Below are positions 1,784-56,049 of a stretch of DNA of 64,000 nucleotides, piece by piece. The stretch comes from Clavaria fumosa (taxonomy: Eukaryota > Basidiomycota > Agaricomycetes > Agaricales > Clavariaceae). Every line of letters starts with the position of its first letter. Positions within the stretch are counted from its first letter, which is position 1. A program made the translations under genes and the position numbers. The stretch lies in contig OX637794.1 of NCBI GenBank assembly GCA_951802425.1, forward strand, positions 682,001 to 746,000, in the 5' to 3' direction. A model generated the notes under the pieces. It did not search any database and was not told the origin of the DNA. It worked only from the letters and a program-made list of their open reading frames with translations.

Positions 1784-3436
1784 CAGTGACTCACAAAACT
1801 GTTCGAATGTTTTGCACTTTTGAGATGATTCACATAAATCTCTCCAGATAAAATTCTGAGGATATTTGTGAAGATAGCCATATGTCTTAGCTACAACCTT
1901 GCTCTATACCATAAGGAACTATCTCCATTTTTGGTAATGTTATTACACCATTTTCTTTCTCACATCATTTGAACAGTTTTGTTGCTGACAATTTTATAAG
2001 TCAAATGTATAAGTATTAGTGTTTAGTATGGCCTCCTTTTGCCTTCAGCACAGCCTCAACCCTTCTAGGCATGCTTTCAATCAATCCCTGACAAACAGAA
2101 GCAGGTATCTTGTTCCACTCCTCTTCCACCCTCTCCCACAACTCTGACACTCCACCTGGTGCCCTTTCATACTCTCCAAGCCTCCTCTTAAGATGACTCC
2201 ACAGATGCTCAATGGGATTGAGATCTGGAGATTGAGCAGGCCATATGAGGACCTTGAAACCATGGACCTTAAGCCAATCTTTGGCCTAGTGGCTCTGGTG
2301 CTTGGGGTCTCCATCATGTTGGAATATGATGTCTTCAGGGGTCTTGTCATAGTATTGGAGGCTAGCCTGAAGTTCATCCTCCAGGATAGCAGTGTAAAGG
2401 TGCTTATCCATCCTCCCATCAATCTTGCAGGCATATCCCACCCCCTCCCACATCATACATCCCCAAACCATCACAGAACCACCACCAAACTTCATTGTTC
2501 CCTCCACCAACCTGTCACCCACTCTATTTTCACCCTGCTTTTTCCACACCCATTTCTTCCCATCAGATCCCAACCTATTGATCTTAGTCTCATCTGACCA
2601 GACAACCCTCTTCCAGTCCTCCATAGTCCAATCTTTATGTGCTACAGCAAAGTCCATCCTCTCCTTCCTATGTCTACTACTAAGTAAGGGCATTTTCTTC
2701 TTAGTTACAGCCTTTAGACCTGCAGTCTTTAGGCACCTTCTAACAGTTTGTGCAGAAATAGGCTGGTTAGTAATACTACTAAGGGTCCTGGCAATCTGCA
2801 CAGCATTTTGTGCCTTGCCAGAGCTGATCAAGCATGAAAGGTGTGGCCAGATAGGATTTTATTGACAAACTCACCTGATTAAATGCTGAGCATAATTGAC
2901 ATTAGTGGAAGACAGCTTGGATGGGCAACCACCAGAGCTCTTGGGAAGGTCTTGGCAGTGCTGAGAGCGAATGGAATGGATAGTACCAATGCTGGAGCCA
3001 GTCAGAAGGGCTATATGGTGAATGGAATGGCCAGAGTGAAGGAGGGAGAGGATAGAACACATCTTATCTGAAGAGAGGGCCCTCATCCTGAGTTGGGGGG
3101 TAAACTGCAGAGATGGCCCTCTATATATACTCACAGACAGTATAATCATGTGACATTGTTGATTCCAAGCCACAATCAACAAAGTCACATGACCTTCTCT
3201 CATATATACTAGTGGAATACTGTCAGCAACAAAACTGTTCAAATGATGTGAGAAAGAAAATTGTGTAATGGCATTACCAAAAATGGAGATAGTTCCTTAT
3301 GGTATAGAGCAAGGTTGTAGCTAAGACATATGGCTATCCTCACAAATATCTTCAGAATTTTACCTGTTTTATCTGGAGAGATATAAGTGAATCATTCCAA
3401 AAGTGCAAAACATTTGAACAGTTTTGTGAGTCACTG
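1784..3436 (-). mobile_element. Tc1/mariner DNA transposon with long TIRs
   Basis: Terminal inverted repeats begin CAGTGACTCACAAAACTG at 1784 and end with the reverse complement at 3436. They extend inward for roughly 200 bp (about 1784-1992 and 3228-3436) with a few mismatches. A TA dinucleotide lies at each edge (1782-1783, 3437-3438), as expected for this superfamily. A transposase pseudogene occupies the interior on the minus strand. The element abuts the TA-flanked MITE at 3441. Confidence 0.9.
2016..3086 (-). pseudogene. Tc1-type transposase with intron and one nonsense codon
   Basis: Minus-strand transposase of about 339 codons, the usual Tc1 length. Exon 3086-2875 carries an HTH-rich N-terminus starting MRALSSDKMCS. 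A 51-bp intron follows (2874-2824, GTGAGT...CAG), and splicing yields LISSGKAQNAV. The second exon contains the DD34E triad: WSDETK, QHDGDPKH and SPDLNPIEHLW, with 34 residues between the second D and E. A single in-frame TAG lies between QSH and AKDW (near 2288), in place of what is probably CAG, so this copy is not autonomous. The remainder ends at a TAA at 2016-2018. The intron placement is inferred from frame and splice consensus. Confidence 0.85.
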
Positions 3437-3440
3437 TATA

Positions 3441-3710
3441 CTAAGATAGACTGCATGCATAACCAACTAATGTCATGTGGTTTATTGCACAAAGTGTGAC
3501 AAAGGGATAAAAATTCAATAAAAAACTGTGATTGTACCATATGAGAAATCCAAAACGATGAAAATTTCTGGATTTGCATCTAAAATTTAACCATCATTTC
3601 CAATTTTTGTGCAAATGTGTGATCAAATTGTTATGTAATAAAGTCTATCCTCTGTCACATGCTTGTCATGACACATGACATTAGTTGGTTATGCATGCGG
3701 TCTATCTTAG
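3441..3710. mobile_element. TA-flanked MITE, 270 bp
   Basis: Inverted termini CTAAGATAGACTGCATGCAT and the rest of a nearly 40-bp TIR match the reverse complement at 3673-3710. TA lies on both sides (3439-3440, 3711-3712). No coding capacity. It is probably a non-autonomous Tc1/mariner-type element. Confidence 0.8.
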
Positions 3711-3712
3711 TA

Positions 3713-4163
3713 GACAATGCAGTGCACAGTATGGGTCATGTGAGCAGAAATGAGGCTATGTGCACTGAGTTGTGAGGAGTCAGAGAGGCAAGATAGGGAA
3801 AGGGGAGTACCAAACAGGGGAGGGAGTGGCAAGGGGGAGATAAGGAACCATGACAGGGGAAATGCTTGGCATGGTCTTGACTGGCTGAGGGGAGGTCTCA
3901 ATTAGGCTAGATTGTTTGATGGGGAGTGTCAGTGACACTATCTTGGATCCACCTCCATCATGAATTCCAAAGTGTGGGAAAAGCACCAAGCAGTGGGGAG
4001 GATCACATGATCATTAACACTGTTAATGCTGGTAATGCTCTTAATGCTCCTGCAAGGTTGTGGGTGGGTGCTAAAGGTTGCATGTGGACATGTGACTTTG
4101 CTTTTTGCTATTGCTATTGGCCTTTGGTATCTGTTAGGGTGGCTTAGGTAAGCAGTCCTGACA
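3713..4163 (-). repeat. Degenerate gypsy LTR-like segment (Gy-A related)
   Basis: The right edge has the Gy-A LTR arrangement: an LTR end in ...CTGACA at 4163 followed by a polypurine tract (on the minus strand) and then the 3' end of pol. The rest is diverged from the Gy-A LTR at 56793. I could not place the left boundary, so this is a related, older subfamily rather than the same one. Confidence 0.4.
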
Positions 4164-4560
4164 TGAGCCCCCTCTTCAAGGCTGGGCATCACAACTGGCC
4201 AGTTTTGCCTTTTCTGGGTATTGAAGGAAGAAGTTGCAGAGGAGTAGAGATACATTGGTGAGGTTACTGCAGGGTTCCCAGGTGTTCTCTTCAACTGGGT
4301 AGCCTGCCCACTCCACCAGGTACTTCACTCCACATCCTACTTTCTTGACATCCAGAATCTCTTCAACATCATATTCCAAATGGTCATCATCAATAGTGGG
4401 GGGAGGAGGTGGTGGTCAGGATTGAGAAGTGAAGGAGGGGGGGTTGTACAGGGTTTGCAGCACCTCATTGAACACATCATGAATATGCCAAGCCAGTGGT
4501 AGCTTAATGTGATATCTGGAGGGTCCACAATGGCAAAGGGTCCAGCATGTTGTCAAGTTT
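4164..4560 (-). pseudogene. Gypsy integrase C-terminus and chromodomain fragment
   Basis: Minus-strand remnant of the 3' end of a gypsy polyprotein. The chromodomain is recognisable (YDVEEILDVKK, VKYLVEWAGYPVEENTWEP) and ends in a tail like that of Gy-A at 57095 (KLA then DAQP). Upstream, residues corresponding to the KLDN...GPFA segment of Gy-A can be followed with several frame breaks and stops up to about 4560. It directly abuts an oppositely oriented RT fragment, so the locus is rearranged. Confidence 0.7.
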
Positions 4561-4690
4561 TTGTTGATTATCAACTACTCAAGGCTGAATGCACACCTGA
4601 TCAAGGACAAGTACCCCCTCCCCCACATCCAAGACACAGTGGATATGCTCAAGGGGGCAAACATCTATTCTAAGATTGATGTGAAGGTGA
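4561..4690 (+). pseudogene. Gypsy reverse transcriptase fragment
   Basis: A short plus-strand stretch reads NYSRLNAHLIKDKYPLP then DTVDMLKGANIYSKID, clearly the finger region of a Gy-A-like reverse transcriptase (compare the minus-strand copy near 59640-59720). It is head-to-head with the chromodomain fragment on the left. No stop occurs within it, but it is cut off at both ends. The following 200 bp to 4887 hold nothing I recognise. Confidence 0.7.
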
Positions 4691-4892
4691 ACAAAATGTT
4701 TAAATAATATTTCTGAACATTTCCTCTCAGCAAAAGTAAGTTCCAAAATGTGTGTAGAAGGCTCTATGAGGCCCACAGATTTGGCACTGCCAGACTTGTG
4801 CACTTATATAATCAGTGGCTGTGCGCATGCACTAGGTTTCTGTGGCCTCATTCTCTGGCTCTCATTCCCCCCCCACTGTCAAACACCCTCTG

Positions 4893-5117
4893 TGTAAGGC
4901 TATAGGCCTTTTCTGTTCTTGTATTACATAATCTACCTACCATAATAGTCTACTAGCATAGCCGCTTAGGCTATGCTTACATCAGCGGCCCCTAGAGGGC
5001 CGCTTGCCTATATATACCGTGTCGTGACTGTACAGAGAGGGTAGATCCCTCTACATAGAACTACTACACTCAATATACAGTTGAGTCTGGTTCTTTTGAG
5101 GGATAGAAAGCTTTACA
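4893..5117 (+). repeat. Gy-E 5' LTR (225 bp)
   Basis: Begins TGTAAGGC and ends CTTTACA. A TATATATA box is at 5009-5016. Several perfect hairpins lie within it, for example AGCATAGCC/GGCTATGCT (4955-4977, loop 5) and GCGGCCC/GGGCCGC (4985-5003). The sequence just downstream shows neither a TGG-starting tRNA-type primer site nor a self-complementary site like those of the other families here. Confidence 0.9.
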
Positions 5118-5155
5118 ACTTTTTTGAACCTTCAACACAACAAGTGTGGTGAGAA

Positions 5156-8010
5156 ATGGGTTACACCTGTATAGCCACGCAGAAAAAGCACAACAGGAAG
5201 GGAGGAGAAACTCCTCCCTTGGTAGGACCTCTGTGCGACACAGGCATCACACAGCCAGAGGGAATAGGACCCTCTGCCGAGCCCAGCGGTGAACCCCTGC
5301 TAAGGGCTGACATGGCGTCACTGGCCCCTGATGACGGCGTTAGGTCCAAAATGCCATCGACACGTGGCAATCGCCATGAGGAGGGCGCCACAATGCACCA
5401 AGTCACTGGCGAGGCGCCATCATTCGAGAAGGCCAGGCCTTCAAAAGGAAAGGGCAGAGAGCCCTTAGAAACCTGTGAGAGGTGGCCGCGAGAGTGGTCA
5501 AGCTCGCGGGCTCCCTCCAATAGTGGAGATGAGCCCACAGTGATAGCGCGAGCTAATGCTGTAGCTGAGAGACTCTCGGACATTCAGGTGGAACTCTCCC
5601 ACCAGGACGAAGAGTTTGAGGCTCTTGTAAGGGCGATGAAAAATCGCCAAGCCACTATTCGGCAACGGCTAAGCGAGGAGGCTACCCATGTTAGGCGGGT
5701 GTTGGACTCACTAGATGAGCAGGGAACCACGCTAGCGGCTCCCTTACGGTGGCAATGCCGTGATTCATTGGAACCTGAAGTGGGGCTTGCCCCGCCGAGT
5801 CAGGTGCCCTCAGGGGTAGCCCCGGAGGCCAGATGGTCGGCGCCAGCCGACTGCGAGGAAGGGTGGCGAAGGGAGAACTGCGCGGACGGTTCTCGAACCC
5901 CTGGTGAACCAGGAATAGAGGGCGGTGGCCCTTGAGAAACAGCGGGGCCGGAGCCACGGCTTATGTCGTGCTACCCACAGCTGGGTCAGTGAGAGCCAAT
6001 GGGCTGGATGGGCCTGTTCAGATGGATGGAACTGCCCCAGAAGGAGCGGGAGATTACTTGGGAGGTATCCCTGAGTTCTACAAATTACCAGAGCGATGTA
6101 TTACATCACTACCTCATGATGATATGAGATAAAACCTCACTATTGCCTGAGGCAATAGCTGAGATTAAGGGGATTAAGATTGACCCCCCTGAGCTTTATG
6201 ATGGACAAGACAACCTCATTGTCTGGGAAAGGTGGCTTGATGGCCTCCTTAATTACTTCTACTTCTATAGAGTAGTTGGCCCACAGTTGGAGCACCAATG
6301 TGTTATGCTAGCGGGGTCACACTTAAGCGGAATAGCCACTACTTGGTATACCCAAGAAGTAATGGGTCTATCCCATGCTCCTCAAAGGTCCACCTTTGAG
6401 GAATTGATAACCGCTATGTTTAAGCGGTTCCTGACTGAGGTAACGGCCCAGAAGGCAGTGGATGCCTTCTATCAGGTGAAGTTTACAAAGGCGAAGGGCA
6501 CCTTGGGATTCTGGAATGAATTGGTCCAGGTGGCAGAGAGAATGCTCACCCTGCCTGATGCCGGTATGATGAAAAGGCAGTTCCTTAATGGACTGCCTAA
6601 TGAGATGGTGGAGGCCATCTTCAAAACTTGTGCGATTAGCATCGAGTTATCCTCGGTTGAGGATATTATCGACACTAGTCGCCAAGTGGAAGTGACCCTC
6701 CACTACCTCCAGCAGCAGAGGGCAGTGCCTTCGGCAGGGAACCAGGCAGGTCCCAAAGGAAACCCGCCCACAGGCAGAGTGCCTGTGGGGCAGAGGTTTG
6801 TGAGACTGCGGCTGTATCGGCTGCACACAGACTGTAGGCCAGGGGAACCTGTTCCTTTGCGGATCAACCATGCACGAGATGAGAGCGCCCAAGCCGGAGG
6901 GAGCAAACCCCGGCTAGAACCACCTAAGGCGGTGCCCAAGATTGGGGTATGAGGCGGAGAGGAGCAGAAAGCTCCTCTAACATGCTATGTGTGCGGGAAA
7001 GTAGGGCACTATGCGAATGTGTGCCCTCAGTCACAGCAAAAGCCAGAGGCTTTTAGGGGAAATGTAAGGAATTATGCCTTACAAGAGGATCCAGGTGAGA
7101 CAGAGCCCGAGGAACCACAGGAAACACCTGTGGTTGAAAGCGAGGAACCGGAGGGTGAAATCCCACCAGAGGAAGTCACGGAAGATGACTATGCTGGTTG
7201 CAGGGACCAGTACGATTCAGACGAGCTCGAGGAGGAGGTGGAAAGCGACCAGGTCACTGGAATCTGGGAAGTGGAAGAGGATGAAGTCCTCTATGCAACA
7301 GAAGTACGCATTGGCCATGTTGATGACAGGCTGTTTCGGGTGCATGTCCAGAAAGAGCGGATGGGATCGTGCCCGGTAGTGACAAAGGAGGCAAGGCAAT
7401 GCCTTGTGGCCTACATCACTGTGAACAGTGTAAAAGCATACACACTTTTTGATTCGGGAAGCACCCTGGACCTGATGAGCCCAGACTTTGCCCGGGTGAC
7501 AAAGGTACTGACCTTCCAACTGGATAATCCAGTTCCTATCCAACTTGGCTGTATCGGCAGCCGATTGACAATCACATGCGGATGCTGCATAGCGGTTGAT
7601 TTAGGAGGAATACTGGTGGAGGACCAGTATTTTGATATAGCGAACATCGACCACTATGACATCATAGTCGGAACGGTGTTCATGTATGACTGCCATGTGA
7701 TACTGGATGTGCACTGATGTGCAATCTGGATTGGAGAAGGGAAGGGGAAAACCCTTCAGGCGATGTCACCCAGTGAGGAGATGGAAGTGTTACACATCTG
7801 TATATCAGCTAAGAACGCGCCGAGGAAGGAAGCTTGAAAGAGCTGACTACACTCAGGCCCCTGAGAGGAGGGTGAGCCCTGGAAGGGGGGAGAGGCTAAT
7901 GCCTCTGTAAAGATAGACGACGCCTACCTCGAAGGTAGGCATGAGTACTGGTTTAACCAGTACACCGAGCTCTTTGGGGGAGTTCCCCCAGACCGCCGCC
8001 ATTTCGGGCG
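5156..8010 (+). pseudogene. Gy-E gag-protease frame, broken by in-frame TGA codons
   Basis: One reading frame runs from ATG 5156 to about 8010. It is interrupted only by TGA codons, at 5933, 5990, 6125, 6950, 7715, 7835, 7844 and 7862, usually where Arg (CGA) would fit. Parts in order: an N-terminal region with a coiled coil (residues about 140-190, VAERLSDIQVELSHQDEEF), a retrotransposon gag core (from IDPPELYDGQDN, about 6180-6720), a CCHC zinc knuckle CYVCGKVGHYANVC (about 6983-7024), an acidic linker, and an aspartic protease with FDSGST near 7450 and a downstream DIIVGTVF. A one-base frame change near 8010 leads into RT. The product would be capsid/nucleocapsid plus protease. Confidence 0.8.
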
Positions 8011-9662
8011 GTGAACCACCGCATACCCTTAATAGATGAAAAGCAAGTCTATAATTATTACCTGCCTCGGTGTGCTGAGGCATTCAAGGAACAATTCCTT
8101 GAGAAGGTGAACCATTATATTACTAACAGTTGGTGGGAAGCAGGAGTGGCATCGCAAGCAGCTCCTATGCTATGCATACCAAAAAGCAGCTGGAACCCGC
8201 TGCTATGGACAGTTGTAGACTGTTGGAAACGGAATGCAAACACAGTACGGGATATTACCCCGTTGCCTGATCAGGATCAGATCAGACAGGATGTGGCTAG
8301 AGCCGCATATAGGTCAAAGATTGACCTATTGGATGCGTACAAGCAAGTACACGTAGAACCTGAGGATGTGTGGAAGATGGCGTTTGTGACCGTCTTGGGC
8401 ACCATGTTCTCACAGGTGATGCAGATAGGGGATTGTAATGCCCCTGCTACCTTCCAGCACCTGATGACGCACATATTTCATCATCAGTTGGGAAAGTATG
8501 TGCATGTGTACTTAGATGATGTATTCATCTTTTCCAAGACCTTGGAGGACCATGAGCGTCACTTAAAGACAGTCTTTGAGACCCTCAAAGGCGCGAGCCT
8601 TTTCTTGAGCAAGAAGAAGTGCTTGTTATACGTGAAGAGTGTAGATTGCTTAGGGCATATTATAGATGCCCAAGGAATCCATGTCACAGTGGATAAAATG
8701 GATAAAATCTGTGACTGGAAAACACTGACAAGCATTACCAAGGTGCAGAGGTTCCTTGGATTAGTACAGTACATCGGACAGTTCATGCCTGATCTGTCCA
8801 CTTATACTGGCCGTTTGGCTAGTCTGTGTAGTGAAACACGAACGTTTCACTGGAGACCACTCCATGACAAGTGCATGGAGATGATTAAGGCATTGGCATG
8901 TAAAATGCCAATACTATGCCCAGTAGATGTGGCAGTACAAGAGCCAATTTGGCTTGTGTGTGATGCCTCAGTGTTGGGCGTAGGGGCCATGTATGGCCAG
9001 GGAAAGACATGGGAGACCTGCTGTCTGGCAGGGTTTATGTCTAAAAGGTTCAGCCTGGCCCAGTTTAGTTATAAAACTTGGGACTGGGAGGCCTTAGTGA
9101 TTGTCGAATCACTACAGAAATGGGAGGATAAACTCCTCGGTAGATGAATCAACGTGGTCACAGACCACGAAGCACTGGGGTTCTTTAAGAACCAAACACA
9201 CTTGTCAGGCCGGCAGGCCAGGTGGATGGAATACATGGAGAGGTTTGACTACTCCATCACTTACATTAAAGGCGAGAGCAACAAAGTTGTGGATGGCCTT
9301 TCGCATTACCATATGAGTGACACGATGGATGAGATTCATCCAGGTCATGAGTACGTGAAGGCGGACGTTCGCCTTGACCCTGAAGGGGACGAGTTGCCCC
9401 GTGGATGCCTGGAGGAGGTGCGCGCACTACGAGTACGTGCACCTGCCGCGGACCAGGAGACCGAGCAGGAGCAACCGCTGCCTGTGCCCCAAGCGGACGG
9501 GGATGTGAGGGACGAGATGCTCGTGCCCTTAAGGCCCTGCGTGGAAGGGGGGGATAGCAGGATGCTGCAAAGCATCCATGATGGCTATGAACAGGATCGC
9601 CTGTTCAAAATAATTTTGGAAAAAAACCAGGAAACTACACCAGTTTTAAGATCAGGGATGAC
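8011..9662 (+). pseudogene. Gy-E reverse transcriptase-RNase H
   Basis: Continues from protease in a shifted frame. RT shows KIDLLDAYKQV, NAPATFQHLM and the catalytic box VYLDDVFIFSK (near 8510). RNase H follows with WLVCDASVLGVGA and, past one in-frame TGA at 9145-9147, VVTDHEALGFFKN and YIKGESNKVVDGLS. A run of seven A near 9618 shifts the frame just before the linker to integrase. The copy is therefore inactive as it stands, although the catalytic YLDD is retained. Confidence 0.85.
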
Positions 9663-11059
9663 CTGATCTTTGCTGAGAATTAAAAGGGAGACGAGGTGCT
9701 CTGCGTGCCTCATACCCTTCATGAAGGGAAAAGCATCCCTGGGAGAATAATCCAGGAAGCCCATGCAGTCCTAGGACACATGGGGTCGCGGATAATGACG
9801 GATTATGTCCGCCATTACTACTGGTGGCCATCAGTGTCTAAAGACATTGATAAGTTTTGCTCATCATGCGGCATATGCCAGACGAGCAAGACTTCTCTGC
9901 AGAAGCCGCAAGGGCTTCTACACACCCTTCCGATCCCCAGGCGGCCCTGGGAATCAATAGGAATGGACTTCGTAGGTCCATTTCCTATGTCAAAAGAGGC
10001 GGACTACCTCTGGGTGGTGATCTGCCACCTCACTTCACTGGTACACCTAGTACCAGTTACTGTTTCGGTAACAGCAGCAGAGCTAGCCTGGCTCTTCCTA
10101 ACCCATGTAGTGAGACTACATGGGTTGCCAGGATCGATTGTGTCTGATCGTGATCCGAGATTTACGTCTGCCTTCTGGCAGGAAACACACCAACTACTCA
10201 GTGTCAAGCTGCGGATGTCCACAGCTTTCCATCCACAGACAGATGGAGCGACGGAACAGTCGATCCGATCTGTGGTCCAACCGGACCAGATGGATTGGGC
10301 GGAGCGAATCCCAATGGTCGAATTTGCCATTAACGTGTCAATCAGCGCATCGATGGGGTTTGCCCCATTTGAGCTCACCTATGGGTACATGCCCCAGATG
10401 ATGGCAGAGTTGCCAGATGACCTCCGGGCAGTGCCCAGAGGTGTAAGGATGTTCGCGGAGAAAGCCGCGCTCAACCTTGCAATGGCACACGACACAATTA
10501 TAGAAAGTCATGTCCACCAGATGTTTTATGCTAACCAGCGTAGATGGGCAGAGCACCCATTTAGGGAGGGAGAATTAGTCTACCTCTCAACAGAGAATTT
10601 GAATCTCCCTAAAAAGAAGCTAGAAAGCTCATGCCGAAGTTTATTGGGCCTTACCCAATACGGTCATGTAGACTGGAATCGTCGACATACGAGCTGGAGC
10701 TCCCCAACTCACTAAAGTCGAGGAGGATCCATCCGACATTCCATGTCAGCCAGTTGCAGCGACATGAGCCGAACGACGATGCGTTGTTTCCGCATCGTGA
10801 AGTGAAAGTCTTTTATGACTTTGGCATGGACCCAAAGGAGGAATGGCTAGTAGATGCCATTATTGGCCATAGGTGGGCAGGATGCCACCTAGAATGCGAG
10901 GTCTGATGGAACCTCAGGGATATGACTTGGGAGCCATATATGGGAGTCAAAGAGCTAGCAGCTCTAGACCACTGCCTTGAGCTACAAGGTGTAGACTCGT
11001 GGAGGGCGCTACCTAGGCGCCCTCGAGCAGAGCACGGACAGAGCGCCCATGCGGAGTAG
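9663..11059 (+). pseudogene. Gy-E integrase with chromodomain-like C-terminus
   Basis: Integrase carries an HHCC zinc domain (EAHAVLGH, then CSSCGICQ) and the DDE core: WESIGMDFVGPF, IVSDRDPRF and HPQTDGATEQ, the last containing the catalytic Glu. The upstream linker has a TAA at 9681, the only stop I noted that is not TGA. Another one-base frame change occurs near 10635. The C-terminal part reads EEWLVDAIIGHRW and, after a TGA at 10904, MTWEPYMGVKEL, which resembles a chromodomain. Ends at TAG 11057-11059. Confidence 0.8.
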
Positions 11060-11192
11060 TAAACACGATCGAGCCAGACCGCGGGGTTGTTAGCCACAGT
11101 GATTAAGTCACGTGGTGGCTCCACCGTAAGGTACAAAACCTTAAGAGGGCCCGCCCTCTTTTTCTCTTTTTCCTCATCAGCCATTTTTTACA

Positions 11193-13331
11193 ATGGATGA
11201 TCCGATGGGGGAAACCCCATCTCCTTGCGCTACCTGTGCTGCTGCCGCTACCGCCGCTGTCCCTGGCCTCGCACCAGGGAACTCGCTGCCGACGAGCATC
11301 ATTGGAACAGCTGGGTTGTCCCAGCCATCGTTGTCGCAAGGGGAGGAAACTCTCCCCTGGGTCCAGGATTGCATGATCCATGTGATCACCCACAGATCCC
11401 AGTGCACTCAGTGTATCGGATTCCGTCGCCACATCTTCAAGTCACTGCTGCACTCGGACGAAGCGTTTCAACAAACACTTAAGGAAGTGCAGGAAAGCGC
11501 TAAGCGTGAGCTCAAGCCGGAGCTTGGGATGATGCAGCGCAAGTTGGATGACTTGCATGAAGAGTATGAGAAGGGCAATGCCCTTTGTGCCGGGCACCGG
11601 CAAAAGCTTGAAAAAGCTTATGATAGCCTGGATAAGGTCGAGAACGACCTTAGAAAGGCACGGGAGAAGATTCTCTCCCTGACTAAAAAGTTGGCAAGCG
11701 CCAATGAGGAGCTCACCGTGGTGCGAACTGCAGCAAAAGGGAAGGGACTGGAAAGGGATCCCTTGGAGCGGGACCCTAAAAGGGCCTGCACTGCTGTCTC
11801 ATACGTGGACATAGCGCCGCCTATGGGGGATGTGGACGTCCCCATGAACGTTGAGGAGGGGTATCCCCCTCTTCCACCTGCTGGTATTAGCCAGCAGAAC
11901 CCCAATGCCTCACTGAGGCATAAACAAATATTTGTGGAGATGGTGCTTGCACCTCTGACAAGGGGTTATCCCTTTAATGCTCCCCGCCTGGACAGGGCTC
12001 CGGATGGCTATCCCTGGCCATCAGGGATGTCTGTCAAGCCCAGTGCGTGGGCTGTCAAGTTGAAGACAGTTGAGGAGGTGATAGCCCTCAACCAGCAGGC
12101 GCATCATGGAGCGCTTGATGGCAGTTATGATATGACTGCCATAATGAAGATGCGATGGGCCATTAAGGAGGCCCAGAAGAATGCGGCAGTGGGAAAGCTG
12201 CCTATGCCAGTTGAGGACTGGCTGTTGAGGAACTGGAGAGTTCCTGCCGGCATCGAGAAATCGGCAGACCGGGTGGCACGCCATCTGCAGGGGCAGATGT
12301 TGCGAGAGAGCGGAGGGATGGGCAACCCATCCCTGAGGGCAGGACCCTTGGAAGTCGCAGGAGGGGGAGCACCCTCCTATCCATCATACCAGACATTGCC
12401 ACTGACAGCAGCAGGAGTGGTTGCGCCTCCCATTAGGGAGTTTGTAGAGACTGGGGAGCCGTTGCTCCCCCAAGAGCTGTGGCTCTCCTTTGTAGGGGAG
12501 AAGGGGGAAATTCCCCCTATGAATCCGAAGGGCAACAGAGGCGCAGTGTCAGACCTGCGCTGCTGGGCTGCCGACATAAGGATGGGCAGGGCGGCCGTCC
12601 TTGGGATTGAAAAAGATGGGGACTCACCCCTGTCTTTTGCACGCAAGGTGGCCATCTGGTGCACCATAATGGCATGCGCACTGTCTCGGGCCCGAATGCA
12701 GCACCCGTTCCTAGCTATGGCTGTAGCCCTCTTTGTGTCAAAGGGGGCATACGCGCAGGCCATCAAAGGGAGAGTCCTCCCTGTACGACATTCCAGGCAC
12801 TGGAACACAAAGATAATGCCAACTGTCATACAGATGATCAAGGCGTTTGTAGACGCTGGAGTCTCCATTGGGGAAACAGAGCTCTGGGACGAATTTGTAC
12901 TCACGTGGGCATGCGAGTATGTGCGAAAGGGGAATGCCCCCTTGGACGATGATATCCAGCTAGTGCTGGGTGAACGGGAGAAGCCTCCCATACCTCCCCG
13001 GACATATGCACTACTAGAGTGTATAGGGTGTGGGGCGCATCCGTGCCGTCTTCGGTTGAGCAAGAAGATGGGAGACGAACGGAGGGACGAACGGAGGGGC
13101 GATGCACCCCTGGACGATGGTGGAAGTACATCCACCGTTAAAAACCCCCTAGGGTTACCTATCGGGGGTTTAACAATATCTCAGACAGAGGGTGTGGGGC
13201 CCTCTCAAAAACAAAAGAAAGTGGCTAAGTCATCAGCCACTAAGGCCGCAAAGAGGCCTGTTGTGTCATCGCCCAACTGGAGTGACGACGAGGGTGAGCC
13301 GCCATGCAACTATGAGCAGGGCTCAGACTAA
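11193..13331 (+). CDS. Gy-E accessory ORF, 712 aa, unrecognised
   Basis: An uninterrupted 712-codon ORF between integrase and the 3' LTR, with a clear ATG at 11193. No known domain was recognised. Features: a CTQC cysteine pair near residue 70; a long coiled coil at about residues 90-180 (KLEKAYDSLDKVENDLRKAR); Pro/Gly-rich linkers; a central conserved-looking region with WCTIMACALSRAR and a hydrophobic stretch FLAMAVALFV; a CIGCGAHPC cluster; and a basic, Ser-rich, acidic-ending tail. No signal peptide, so an envelope role is unlikely. It keeps an open frame while upstream gag-pol carries about ten stops. It could be a structural, RNA-binding or host-interaction factor; function is unknown. 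Confidence 0.8.
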   Translation: MDDPMGETPSPCATCAAAATAAVPGLAPGNSLPTSIIGTAGLSQPSLSQGEETLPWVQDCMIHVITHRSQCTQCIGFRRHIFKSLLHSDEAFQQTLKEVQESAKRELKPELGMMQRKLDDLHEEYEKGNALCAGHRQKLEKAYDSLDKVENDLRKAREKILSLTKKLASANEELTVVRTAAKGKGLERDPLERDPKRACTAVSYVDIAPPMGDVDVPMNVEEGYPPLPPAGISQQNPNASLRHKQIFVEMVLAPLTRGYPFNAPRLDRAPDGYPWPSGMSVKPSAWAVKLKTVEEVIALNQQAHHGALDGSYDMTAIMKMRWAIKEAQKNAAVGKLPMPVEDWLLRNWRVPAGIEKSADRVARHLQGQMLRESGGMGNPSLRAGPLEVAGGGAPSYPSYQTLPLTAAGVVAPPIREFVETGEPLLPQELWLSFVGEKGEIPPMNPKGNRGAVSDLRCWAADIRMGRAAVLGIEKDGDSPLSFARKVAIWCTIMACALSRARMQHPFLAMAVALFVSKGAYAQAIKGRVLPVRHSRHWNTKIMPTVIQMIKAFVDAGVSIGETELWDEFVLTWACEYVRKGNAPLDDDIQLVLGEREKPPIPPRTYALLECIGCGAHPCRLRLSKKMGDERRDERRGDAPLDDGGSTSTVKNPLGLPIGGLTISQTEGVGPSQKQKKVAKSSATKAAKRPVVSSPNWSDDEGEPPCNYEQGSD

Positions 13332-13649
13332 GTGTCCGAGCTCTTTAAAATAATAATTATATATATATATATATGCCTACCCTGCAGGACGAGACAGTGG
13401 CACTTGGGGCACCCCCCACTGGGGCATGCTGCTCGTGACACGCTGTCCAACTGGGGGCAGGTCATGCAGACCACCGGGTAGGACCTGTCAGCACCAGGCA
13501 AAGGCCCCAGGAGGGGATCGCGCCCAGTGACATGGCGGTAACCCTGCCCAAGGGGATGCGCCCCTTGTAAAATTACCCTATGATCCTGCTTGTCGTCCCG
13601 CGCTGCCTGTGTGTTGTCTCTGGTTGGGGGCCTCTCCAGTGGGGGAGGG
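13332..13649 (+). other. Gy-E 3' untranslated region and polypurine tract
   Basis: Non-coding stretch between the accessory ORF and the 3' LTR. It holds an AT dinucleotide run at about 13351-13374, then GC-rich sequence with more short inverted repeats, and ends in the polypurine tract GTGGGGGAGGG abutting the LTR at 13650. Confidence 0.7.
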
Positions 13650-13874
13650 TGTAAGGCTATAGGCCTTTTCTGTTCTTGTATTACATAATCTACCTACCAT
13701 AATAGTCTACTAGCATAGCCGCTTAGGCTATGCTTACATCAGCGGCCCCTAGAGGGCTGCTTGCCTATATATACCGTGTCGCGACTGTACAGAGAGGGTA
13801 GATCCCTCTACATAGAACTACTACACTCAATATACAGTTGAGTCCGGTTCTTTTGAGGGATAGAAAGCTTTACA
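13650..13874 (+). repeat. Gy-E 3' LTR (225 bp)
   Basis: Same length as the 5' LTR, differing at about three C/T positions. Followed by the TSD CTCTG at 13875-13879. Confidence 0.9.
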
Positions 13875-13963
13875 CTCTGTGCACTTTGTGTGCAATCTAG
13901 GTTACAAAGTAAGCCTCCAAAACTTCATATTTACCTATCTTATCATTTAATTTACTGTTTTCT

Positions 13964-50613: not shown

Positions 50614-51104
50614 ATGAAACGCGGTTTCTTGAACAAGACTAAAGCTTCTGCTACGCGTCAGTTCTCGGATGATCTGCGGTTGCCATGCTCATCCTGCTTT
50701 CTAGATATCCCATCACAGTCCACTGTGACCAAACCTGCTGGCACGATCTCGAGTTCACCTCTCCCCATATCCATGCCTGACAATGCCACTGCTCACCACT
50801 TCACCAAAACTATCCAAGGTCTCAAGTTCATGAACTATGACCCTCACGCCACCATTCAATATCCTGAGGAAACCTGTATATTGACTTCCGTTGCTCCAAA
50901 GAGCACTCACATATTGCCGCTTGGAAATGAACACGCTGAATGCATTTTCACTGGTGGCACGCATCAGGAAAAAGAACCCCCAGCAGTAGACATCAGCATA
51001 GACTATGTAGACTACACAGCCTGTATAGACTGCTGTAGCATATGTACTGAGAAAAATAGTAATACATAGAAGGTATGGATTACTATATAGCATGCAATAG
51101 ACTG

Positions 51105-51413
51105 GGTAGCATATTATGAGTGCATTGTAGTAATGGTAGTAGAGCCTATGTACTATGTTGAGCCTAGTAGCATATTATGAGTGCATTGTAGTCACGGTAG
51201 TAGAGCCTATGTACTATGTTGAGCCTAGTAGCATATTATGAGTGCATTGTAGTTACGGTAGTAGAGCCTATGTACTATGTTGAGCCTAGTAGCATATTAT
51301 GAGTGCATTGTAGTTACAGTAGTAGAGCCTATGTACTATGTTGAGCCTAGTAGCATATTATGAGTGCATAGTAGTAATAGTAGTAGAGCCAATGTACTAT
51401 GTTGAGCCTAGTA
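51105..51413. repeat. Subterminal tandem repeat, about 61 bp x 5
   Basis: Unit contains TAGCATATTATGAGTGCAT, then GTAGTAGAGCCTATGTACTA and TGTTGAGCC; five adjacent copies with few differences. Near the left end of the TIR insertion, a typical place for transposase-binding repeats. Confidence 0.85.
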
Positions 51414-51649
51414 GCAACTAGTGATAGTGCTGTTGGGTAGGATAGTAAGCCTTTGTACTACATTGAATTGACAGCACAGATGTTGTCATGATTATGATAT
51501 AATCAGGAGCTGAGTGGAGGTGAGGTGAATTCCAGTGCAAGGTTGAAGCAATAAACTCATGAGTGTTTCAGCAGGCTATAGATTAGGATCAAAATGAACA
51601 ATTCATGATATTGTGCAGTATATGACAAGTACATAGAGTAGTCTCTTTT

Positions 51650-53520: not shown

Positions 53521-53686
53521 TTTTCATGATTTTTTTCAATTTTTTTTAATCTACAGGGCGATGGAGGGCGACGGCACTTCTCCGTCTCCTCTCTCTCACT
53601 CTCCTCACTCTCCCTCTCCTCCCTCTCCTCCCTCGCTCTCTCCTCCCTCTCTCCTCCCTCTTCCTTCCCCTCCCTCTCTCCTCCAG

Positions 53687-53818
53687 CAACTACGACGACG
53701 GCAGCGGCGGCGGCGACGGGGGTGGCGACGGCGGCGGCGGCGGCGGCAGCGACAGCAGCGGCGGCGGCGGCAGCGGCGGCGACGGCGGCGGCAACAGCAA
53801 CATCGGCGGCAGCGACGG

Positions 53819-53850
<32 letters not shown>

Positions 53851-55841
53851 ACGGCGGCGGCAACAGCAACATCGACGGCGGTGGCGGCAGCGACGGCGGC
53901 GGCGGCGGCAACAGCAACATCGACGGCGGCGGCGGCGGCAGCAACAGCGGCGGTGACGGCGGCGGCAGCGACAGCAGCGGAGGCGGCAGCGACGGGGGCG
54001 GCAGCGGCGGCGACGGCAGCGGCGGCAACAGCAACATCGACGGCGGTGGCGGCAGCGACGGCGGCGGCGGCGGCGGTGACGGCGGCGGCAGCGACAGCAG
54101 CGGAGGCGGCGGCGACGGGGGCGGCAGCGGCGGCGACGGGGGCGGCAACAGCAACATCGACGGCGGTGGCGGCAGCGACGGCGGCGGCGGCGGCAGCGAC
54201 AGCAGCGGAGGCGGCGGCGACGGGGGCGGCGGCGACGGGGGGCGGCAGCGACAGCGGCGGCAGTGACAGCGACGGCGGCGACGGCGGCGGCGACGGCGGC
54301 GGCAACAGCGAGGGCAGCAGCGGCGGCGGCAACAGCGAGGGCAGCAGCGGCGGCGACGGCGGCGGCGACGGCGGCGGCGACGGCGGCGGCAGCGGCGGCA
54401 GCAGCGAGGGCAGCAGCGGCGGCAGCAACAACGACGGCAGCGGCAGCAACAACGACGGCGACGGCGGCGGCAACAGCGGCGGCAGCGACGGCAACGGCGG
54501 CGGCAGTGACGGCGGCGGCAGCGACGGCAACGGCGGCGGCAGTGACGGCGGCGGCAGTGACGGCGGCGGCAGCGACGGCAACGGCGGCGGCAGTGACGGC
54601 GGCGGCAGCGACGGCAACGGCGGCGGCAGTGACGGCGGCGGCAGCGACGGTGACGGCGGCGGCGGCGGCAGCAGCAACATCGACGGCAGCGGCAGCAACA
54701 ACGACGGCGGCGGCGGCAGCAGCAACATCGACGGCAGCGGCAGCAACAACGACGGCGGCGGCGGCGGCGGCGACAGCAGCGGCGGCAGCGACGGCGACGG
54801 CGGCGGCGGCAACAGCAGCGGCGGCGGTGGCGGCGGCGGCGGCAACAGCAGCGGCGGCGGCAACAGCAGCGGCGGCGGTGGCGGCGGCGGCGGCAACAGC
54901 AGCGGCGGCGGTGGCGGCGGCGGCGGCAACAGCAGCGGCGGCGGTGGCGGCGGCGGCGGCAACAGCAGCGGCGGCGGTGGCGGCGGCGGCGGCAACAGCA
55001 GCGGCGGCGGTGGCGGCGGCGGCGGCAACAGCAGCGGCGGCGGTGGCGGCGGCGGCGGCAACAGCAGCGGCGGCGGTGGCGGCGGCGGCGGCAACAGCAG
55101 CGGCGGCGGTGGCGGCGGCGGCGGCAACAGCAGCGGCGGCGGTGGCGGCGGCGGCGGCAACAGCAGCGGCGGCGGTGGCGGCGGCGGCGGCAACAGCAGC
55201 GGCGGCGGTGGCGGCGGCGGCGGCAACAGCAGCGGCGGCGGTGGCGGCGGCGGCGGCAACAGCAGCGGCGGCGGCGGCAACAGCAGCGGCGGCGGTGGCG
55301 GCGGCGGCGGCAACAGCAGCGGCGGCGGCGGCAACAGCAGCGGCGGCGGTGGCGGCGGCGGCGGCAACAGCAGCGGCGGCGGTGGCGGCGGCGACAGCAG
55401 CGGCGGCGGTGGCGGCGGCGACAGCAGCGGCGGCGGTGGCGGCGGCGACAGCAGCGGCGGCGGCAACAGCGGCGGCAGCAACATCGACGGCAGCGGCAGC
55501 AACAACGACGGCGGCAGCGGCAGCGACGGCGACGGCGGCGGCAGCGACAGCGACGGCGGCGGCAGCGACAGCGACGGCGGCGGCAGCGACAGCGACGGCG
55601 GCGGCAGCGACAGCGACGGCGGCGGCAGCGACAGCAACGGCGGCGACAGCGGCGGCAGCGGCGGCGGCAGCGACAGCGACGGCAGCGGCAGCAACAACGA
55701 CGGCGACGGCGGCGGCAGCGACAGCGACGGCAGCGGCAGCAACAACGACGGTGACGGCGGCGGCAACAATGACGGTGACGGCGGCGGCAACAACGACGGC
55801 GACGGCGGCGGCAACAGCGGCGGCGGCGGCGGCAGCAGCAG
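53687..55841. repeat. 2.2-kb GNC-triplet repeat field with 33-bp units
   Basis: Almost pure (GGC/AGC/GAC/AAC)n. Between about 54810 and 55400 a 33-bp unit (eight Gly codons then AAC AGC AGC) is repeated in tandem, about 15 times. Because the triplets contain no stop in any frame on either strand, long ORFs appear in all frames. They are not taken as genes. Confidence 0.9.
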
Positions 55842-55898
55842 CAATGGCCCAGGCCCCCTACTGCAGTCACAGACTGACAGTGGGGACCTGGGCCATTG
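55842..55898. repeat. 57-bp foldback at right edge of GNC field
   Basis: CAATGGCCCAGGCCCC pairs with GGGGACCTGGGCCATTG with one bulge, and inner TACTG/CAGTG continues the stem. It marks the end of the triplet field. Confidence 0.7.
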
Positions 55899-56049
55899 AT
55901 TTTGTGCTGGCTGGTGTGCAGAGGAAGGAAGGAGCAGTGGTGGCAGCAGGAAGCGGCACATAGCACTACCATAGTCTACTGTAGTATCAACCTGGGCTAC
56001 CATTTGAGACAAGTAAACTATTGAATCACCTTTGCATACTCTGGTGCAT

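What the first reader, a model, noticed from the sequence alone, without database searches (positions are those of the whole stretch)
4893..13874. Retrotransposon Gy-E is saturated with short perfect hairpins
Across LTRs, gag, protease, RT, integrase and the accessory ORF, perfect inverted repeats with small loops recur every few tens of bases. Examples: 5198-5220 (10-bp stem, loop AAA); 6140-6158 (8-bp stem, loop TGA); 6380-6401 (10 bp, loop 2); 6767-6789 (10 bp, loop 3); 7922-7940 (8 bp); 7945-7963 (9 bp, loop 1); 8830-8851 (8 bp); 9648-9670 (9 bp); 10100-10126 (12 bp, loop 3); 11202-11219 (7 bp); 11634-11651 (7 bp); 11878-11897 (7 bp). I do not see this in Gy-A, Gy-B, Gy-D or the host genes. 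Coding sequence is bent to this pattern, which is remarkable. Possible causes: selection for RNA structure (packaging, self-protection or triggering of silencing), or a mutational process such as reverse-transcriptase template switching that perfects quasi-palindromes.
Basis: seen in the sequence. Interest (0 to 1): 0.9.

Follow-up and report, generated by a model that had tools for sequence, protein, structure and literature searches.

The report
Retrotransposon genome packed with RNA hairpins
A fungal jumping gene of the Ty3/Gypsy kind carries about ten times more short, perfectly paired hairpins than its own codons would give by chance, along nearly its whole length and straight through its genes, so its RNA is probably folded about as tightly as an RNA phage genome; why is not settled.

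Summary
Gy-E (4893-13874) has 66 perfect inverted repeats (stem >=7, loop 0-8; 62 without one (TA)n run), 7.3/kb, against about 1/kb in the rest of the window. With codon-preserving shuffles: pol (copy L013) 20 vs 1.9, gag-PR 17 vs 1.8, accessory ORF 15 vs 2.0; two other Gypsy ORFs are at or below chance. All 20 pol copies fetched share it (21-40 stems per 4.1 kb); 16 sampled genome stretches without Gy-E do not. Only stems >=5 bp are enriched, mostly with loops up to 7. Folding energy exceeds dinucleotide shuffles by 21-27%, as in ten ssRNA phages (13-30%), with about three times their perfect-hairpin density. Conserved residues are kept, free residues bent. RNA-level selection is favoured by A-rich, C-poor loops and G-U exceeding A-C mismatches. 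A hairpin-inverting mutation process also acts: two loops occur inverted between copies, one as CC in 47 and GG in 38 of 88 matched copies without CG or GC. Recent copies show no extra constraint on stems. Best reading: genome-scale ordered RNA structure in an LTR retrotransposon, helped by template switching. The cause is not proven.

The parts
4888..4892 (.). target site duplication CTCTG, left
   Evidence: identical to 13875-13879
4893..5117 (+). 5' LTR, 225 bp, TG...CA, with hairpins at 4955-4977 and 4984-5004
   Evidence: 3 differences to the 3' LTR; hairpins
5156..7717 (+). gag-protease region (one frame, broken by stops in this copy); 17 stems >=7
   Evidence: RVP_2 in 6989-7717; 1.77 expected from codon shuffles
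6379..6402 (+). 11-bp hairpin, 2-nt loop CC here, inverted to GG in 38 of 88 copies matched by the pattern
8011..10960 (+). RT-RNase H-integrase (several ORFs in different frames in this copy; one 880-aa open stretch in copy L013); 21 stems >=7 with two-letter arms left out
   Evidence: RVT_1, RT_RNaseH, Integrase_H2C2. The end 10960 is my working bound, not a mapped stop
10100..10126 (+). longest hairpin, 12 bp, loop GAG
   Evidence: loop not inverted at the 12 places whose strand I checked
10420..10442 (+). quasi-hairpin (AGT loop here) whose loop GGT/AGT is inverted to ACC in 2 copies, standard in 51
11193..13331 (+). accessory ORF, 712 aa, unknown; 15 stems >=7
   Evidence: no Pfam match, one database relative P0121
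13650..13874 (+). 3' LTR
13875..13879 (.). target site duplication CTCTG, right

Best explanation
[quoted passage not shown] The hairpins act by number, not as individual signals (no common loop motif, no regular spacing). Inferred, not shown: dense local pairing keeps the RNA compact for packaging and closed to antisense RNA, siRNA-guided cleavage and nucleases in a fungal host presumed to have RNA interference. Shown: some hairpin loops have been inverted in place, a footprint of template switching, so replication probably helps create and perfect hairpins, with protein function filtering which ones stay.
For: Excess of about 7-11x over codon-preserving shuffles in the three coding regions. 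Folding energy vs codon shuffles: pol z -21 sense, -16 antisense; gag -9.5/-7.2; accessory -10/-10; the two other Gypsy ORFs between -1.4 and +0.3. MFED 20.7% (window copy, 50 of 50 windows positive) and 26.6% (L013) vs -0.6 to 5.3% in six control stretches; in PMC7642675 HCV 7.5-10.7%, SARS-CoV-2 about 15%, maximum 23.4%. Ten ssRNA phage genomes: MFED 13-30% on both strands, 1.6-3.6 perfect stems/kb vs 6.8-8.5 in three Gy-E copies. Loops A 0.34 vs 0.26 and C 0.18 vs 0.26 by chance, U and G nearly unchanged. One-mismatch stems: G-U 31 vs 7.3 expected, A-C 21 vs 9.2; L013 21 vs 1.8 against 9 vs 2.4; phages 104 vs 28.0 against 65 vs 25.1. Stem codons lie in columns at least as conserved as the rest; residues of strongly conserved columns are kept (0.95 match in stems and outside), free columns are bent: 3 of 35 stem vs 40 of 133 non-stem residues match the relatives' commonest residue (counts from its fractions). 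The protein's capacity for hairpins ranks 2 of 61 and, composition-corrected, 4 of 121.
Against: No extra constraint on stems among recent copies: non-CpG shared variants 43 of 1,410 stem sites vs 126 of 3,136 outside, p 0.13; shared/singleton ratio the same, p 1.0; shared CpG variants the same; only CpG singletons are fewer in stems, p 0.017. G-U is rarer relative to perfect stems than in phages (L013 21:31, phages 104:71). The window copy and L036 show hardly any G-U over A-C (31:30, 33:28). G-U vs A-C present in 60% or more of copies is only 12 vs 7, p 0.11. Stem G+C is not raised over chance stems (0.55-0.57 vs 0.59-0.61). No polymorphism skew towards G-U. Relatives as a group also lie above their shuffles in hairpin capacity (ratio 1.12), so the protein signal is modest. 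No RNA probing and no sister family.
Confidence: 0.52

Rival explanations
1. Mutational ratchet: the element's reverse transcriptase (or another polymerase in its cycle) often switches template at nascent hairpins, copying one arm into the other. Quasi-palindromes become perfect ones; selection only removes those that harm the proteins. The hairpins themselves have no function.
For: Two loop inversions: window 6379-6402 loop CC/GG, 47/38 of 88 matched copies, no CG or GC, and GGT/AGT to ACC in 2 copies vs 51. Perfect stems dominate, stem G+C not raised. Non-CpG variants create vs destroy stems >=7 at 15:29, null ratio about 0.2, in singletons (8:16) as in shared variants (7:13); stems >=6 20:51. 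Template switching as maker of perfect hairpins and inverter of loops is published (PMC8794818).
Against: Only one clear reverse-complement footprint (16-19 nt) among the difference clusters of the 20 pol copies; the other rows of 9-11 nt are little above the reversed and direct controls; one site in the gag comparisons. Rough balance from these rates gives well under 1 hairpin/kb, far below 7/kb (my estimate). CpG variants show no clear create excess (20:53 against a null of about 0.3). Density is not higher in less conserved protein windows (1.29, 2.0, 1.71 per window from low to high conservation). Loop strand asymmetry is not expected. No inversion in the 100 listed of 109 LTR hairpin matches or at the 12 strand-checked places of the 10100 hairpin.
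Confidence: 0.3
2. DNA-level function: the palindromes act as cruciform-forming or protein-binding sites in the integrated DNA or cDNA.
For: Watson-Crick symmetry of most stems; in-place inversion could also come from cruciform resolution.
Against: No shared loop motif, short stems, loop composition strand-asymmetric, G-U over A-C in 16 of 20 pol copies.
Confidence: 0.07
3. Dispersed packaging signals: many hairpins each bound by Gag.
For: Hairpins spread over nearly the whole RNA.
Against: No single loop sequence shared (some 3-mers such as GCA 10 vs 3.4 are raised), variable stem and loop lengths, irregular spacing.
Confidence: 0.06
4. Compositional or codon-usage artefact.
For: None found.
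Against: Dinucleotide and codon-order controls; two other Gypsy ORFs at or below chance.
Confidence: 0.01

Closest known systems
[quoted passage not shown] coronaviruses, HCV, pegiviruses (PMC7642675: passages read, abstract passage among them)
   Same: Pairing energy raised along the genome including coding sequence, made of many consecutive stem-loops, weakly tied to synonymous constraint
   Different: Gy-E is a retrotransposon replicating through DNA in a fungus; its MFED (21-27%, other shuffling algorithm) lies around the published maximum of 23.4%; stems are short and mostly strictly Watson-Crick
Single-stranded RNA phage genomes (MS2, Qbeta, SP and 7 metagenomic Leviviricetes, measured here)
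   Same: MFED 13-30%, alike on both strands; G-U over A-C in the sum
   Different: Gy-E has about three times the phage mean of perfect stems >=7 per kb (6.8-8.5 vs 1.6-3.6), purine-rich 5' arms (0.59-0.65; nine of ten phages 0.43-0.51, one 0.59), fewer G-U relative to perfect stems; phage loops are rich in A and/or U, Gy-E loops in A
Template-switch mutations that create and mend RNA hairpins (PMC8794818: abstract, Results part 1 and sections 8-9 read)
   Same: Perfect reverse-complement arms, loop inversion as footprint
   Different: There rare events in rRNA and microRNA genes; here hairpins fill a 9-kb mobile element, and only two inversions were found
Ty1 and Ty3 genomic RNA structures (PMC11381356: abstract and one section; PMC9503155: passages)
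   Same: LTR-retrotransposon gRNA with local structure
   Different: Described as mosaics with stable regions up to 30% of the RNA and A-rich; no end-to-end saturation by perfect hairpins is reported in what I read. Their sequences were not measured here

Membership tests
Ty3/Gypsy LTR retrotransposon | Paired LTRs TG...CA with target site duplication | tested here: met
   225-bp LTRs, 3 differences, TSD CTCTG
Ty3/Gypsy LTR retrotransposon | Protease, RT, RNase H, integrase in this order | tested here: met
   RVP_2, RVT_1, RT_RNaseH, Integrase_H2C2 in this order; rve below its cut-off
Ty3/Gypsy LTR retrotransposon | tRNA primer binding site and polypurine tract | not tested
   -
GORS | MFED clearly above sequence-order-shuffled controls | tested here: met
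   20.7% and 26.6% vs -0.6 to 5.3%; my shuffles preserve dinucleotides, the published ones use the NDR algorithm
GORS | Structure spread over the whole genome, coding included | tested here: met
   50 of 50 windows positive, minimum 5.2%
GORS | Overall folding kept while individual pairings drift between relatives | not testable with these tools
GORS | RNA folded so in the cell | not testable with these tools
Template-switch-made hairpins | Loop inversion or multi-base reverse-complement change in one step | tested here: met
   two sites
Template-switch-made hairpins | Such events frequent enough to explain the hairpins | tested here: inconclusive
   single-base mends cannot be told from point mutations; mild create excess at non-CpG sites only

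The most novel reading that the evidence does not exclude
Gy-E belongs to a retrotransposon lineage that writes perfect hairpins into its own genome by hairpin-templated reverse transcription and is selected to keep them. The result is an LTR retrotransposon with an RNA-phage-like, end-to-end structured genome that shields the RNA from antisense and siRNA attack. This would give a generator for the unexplained genome-wide structure of RNA genomes.
Probability: 0.3. Interest if true: 0.9.

Novelty: new variant of a known kind. Interest (0 to 1): 0.74.

Why it matters
Genome-wide RNA structure is known from RNA viruses and RNA phages, where its purpose is still debated. Finding it, near the top of the published range, in a multicopy fungal retrotransposon gives a system with many copies in one genome. 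There, the two competing origins (selection on folding, or polymerases that perfect hairpins) can be separated. In the eight literature searches made (listings, plus the four papers named) I saw no report of a hairpin-saturated LTR retrotransposon; most subscription papers and bioRxiv preprints are not in that library.

Tried and rejected
Distant relatives by DNA: viral contigs with one protein and with an alignment, genome contigs with the alignment: none confirmed; plasmids: only remote RT hits. Searches of the own genome with three relatives' proteins and with accessory-ORF DNA gave capped lists (39-85 rows) that I read as Gy-E copies by place and identity; no other family stood out. L041 and L042, fetched in the hope of a sister family, are 94-97% identical Gy-E. 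Classical covariation was given up: copies too similar and variation dominated by CpG transitions. An apparent compensatory change in the LTR hairpin of the L030 repeats is at CpG on both sides and not counted. Codon register of stems: no preference. First view that G-U is not favoured (strict definition) was changed by the wider count and the phage yardstick. Equal folding of the antisense strand was first taken as evidence against RNA selection; ssRNA phages show the same, so dropped. Depletion of variants in stems was not significant once misaligned stretches were removed. The automatic loop-flip test gave 6 of 287 sites at stem >=4 and 2 of 36 at stem >=7; by eye only the site of L003 is clear, the rest are 2-nt loops or misaligned flanks. 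The arm change that L003 carries beside its inverted loop also occurs without inversion in L007, so it is not counted as part of the event. Rows left out: L010, L019, L020 (decayed or with foreign flanks) and the shared counts of 80; L021, L022, L030, L036 from the genome background. drop stems whose arm has only two letters, hence 58 instead of 66. Loop-width limit: copy L036 shows some excess up to loop 12. L064 and L065 duplicate L063 and L066 and were not used.
Full report
What was checked. Preserving protein and codon counts, shuffles give 1.8-2.0 where 15-20 are seen in gag-protease, pol (copy L013) and the accessory ORF. Two ORFs of other Gypsy elements in the window give 1 and 0 where 1.0 and 1.3 are expected (their domains). 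Of 20 sampled 10-kb stretches of the genome, the three dense ones carry Gy-E sequence (L021, L036, and L030 with tandem LTR-like pieces); 16 others average 0.65/kb with at most 3 in any 1-kb bin; the twentieth, L022, overlaps the window.

Anatomy. Gy-E is flanked by CTCTG duplications and 225-bp LTRs with 3 differences. It has protease, RT, RNase H and integrase domains and an unplaced 712-aa ORF before the 3' LTR, with one database relative. The genome, 48.8 Mb, holds many copies: 40 scored of 193 candidates for an RT stretch, 88 places for one gag hairpin.

Shape of the signal. Stems of 2-4 bp are at chance in pol; the excess begins at 5 bp (29 vs 9.7) and falls off slowly to 10-12 bp. It lies mostly at loops of up to 7; wider spacings are near background, with some excess to 12 in copy L036. 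Bases in perfect stems >=5 with loop 3-7 make up 18.9% of Gy-E and 5.5% of the rest. LTR, gag, pol and accessory ORF have similar densities; the 3' untranslated part has few.

Folding. Against codon shuffles the pol of copy L013 has z -21 (sense) and -16 (antisense). With 350-nt windows and dinucleotide shuffles, the energy difference is 20.7% for the window copy and 26.6% for L013. PMC7642675 gives about 15% for SARS-CoV-2, 7.5-10.7% for HCV and a maximum of 23.4% among vertebrate RNA viruses (shuffling algorithm not identical). Ten ssRNA phage genomes measured here give 13-30% on the sense and 13-30% on the antisense strand, with 1.6-3.6 perfect stems/kb against 6.8-8.5 in three Gy-E copies.

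Protein. Stem codons lie in columns at least as conserved as the rest (difference 0.044, 6% of circular shifts as large). Where relatives are nearly invariant, Gy-E keeps the residue in stems and outside alike (0.95); where the commonest residue is under 40%, stem residues match it in 3 of 35 against 40 of 133 outside. The number of hairpins that synonymous choice could make from the Gy-E protein is second highest of 61, and fourth of 121 after correction for composition; relatives as a group also lie a little above their shuffles. So codons, and at free places probably residues, are bent to pairing.

RNA or DNA, selection or mutation. For RNA: loops are rich in A and poor in C, with U and G hardly changed. 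One-mismatch stems favour G-U (31 vs 7.3) over A-C (21 vs 9.2); G-U exceeds A-C in 16 of 20 pol copies, with one tie and three the other way, and in the sum of ten ssRNA phages. But the full-length window copy and L036 are nearly even (31:30 and 33:28), and stems shared by 60% or more of the copies give 12:7, p 0.11. The 5' arms are purine-rich (0.64 vs 0.52); nine of ten phages do not show this. Against current selection: stem sites vary among copies about as much as other sites, and the variants that create stems are as common among singletons as among shared ones.

Template switching. In L003 a pol hairpin has its loop turned from GGT to ACC; 2 copies in the genome carry it, 51 the standard form (exact pattern matches, mirror matches of the palindrome removed by the strand of the copy). 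In gag, at window 6379-6402, the loop is CC in 47 and GG in 38 of 88 places, with 2 TC, 1 GA and no CG or GC (three palindromic double matches removed; copies with other flank changes are not matched). Two adjacent transversions with no mixed form, inside a hairpin, are what a single inversion gives. Two other hairpins show none: 0 of the 100 listed LTR matches (109 in all), and none at the 12 strand-checked places of the 10100 hairpin. Non-CpG variants among copies create stems more often than random substitutions would (15:29 against about 0.2); CpG variants do not clearly. The process is real here but, at the seen rate, does not by itself account for the density; that balance is my rough estimate.

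Conclusion. The pattern is real, strong, seen only in this family among what was sampled, and new to me for an LTR retrotransposon. I favour genome-scale RNA structure, created with the help of template switching and kept for its overall folding (0.52), over a purely mutational ratchet (0.30). Shown: the excess, its predicted folding strength, the protein bending, the two inversions. Inferred: that the RNA folds so in cells, and that folding protects or compacts it. The host's RNA interference is assumed from general knowledge of Agaricomycetes, not tested.

Noticed in passing
L030 (G000:C2:100001-110000), 2838-10000: At least 12 tandem units of 585 bp, each holding a stretch of about 185 bp 83% identical to the start of the Gy-E LTR: an LTR-derived tandem array.
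   Followed up: partly
L041 (G000:C7:403879-407283), about 1040-1680: A Gy-E copy whose pol contains about 640 nt of foreign sequence that reads like a copia-type gag/protease piece (my reading, not searched), inside an open frame listed as 1170 aa.
   Followed up: no
window 11193-13331: Intact 712-aa accessory ORF between integrase and 3' LTR, no Pfam match; a single relative (P0121, 56% over 54%) in the protein search, which scored a capped set of candidates.
   Followed up: partly
window 53602-56012: GC-rich repeat with a spacing of 9-15 bp and long open frames on both strands; no Pfam match for the 760-aa frame.
   Followed up: no
window 51045-51477: Six tandem copies with a 61-bp period.
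   Followed up: no
Gy-E copies L001-L020, L043-L062: Differences between copies are dominated by C-to-T and G-to-A changes at CpG on both strands, as methylation decay would give; L020, L010 and the window copy have the lowest G+C.
   Followed up: partly
L008 693-718 and other copies: An 18-nt in-frame stretch that helps form a 10-bp hairpin is present in some copies and missing in at least 7, flanked by GAGCTC repeats.
   Followed up: no
proteins P0049, P0052, P0088, P0002: Relatives whose protein sequences also have unusually high capacity for hairpins; their DNA may be hairpin-rich too.
   Followed up: no
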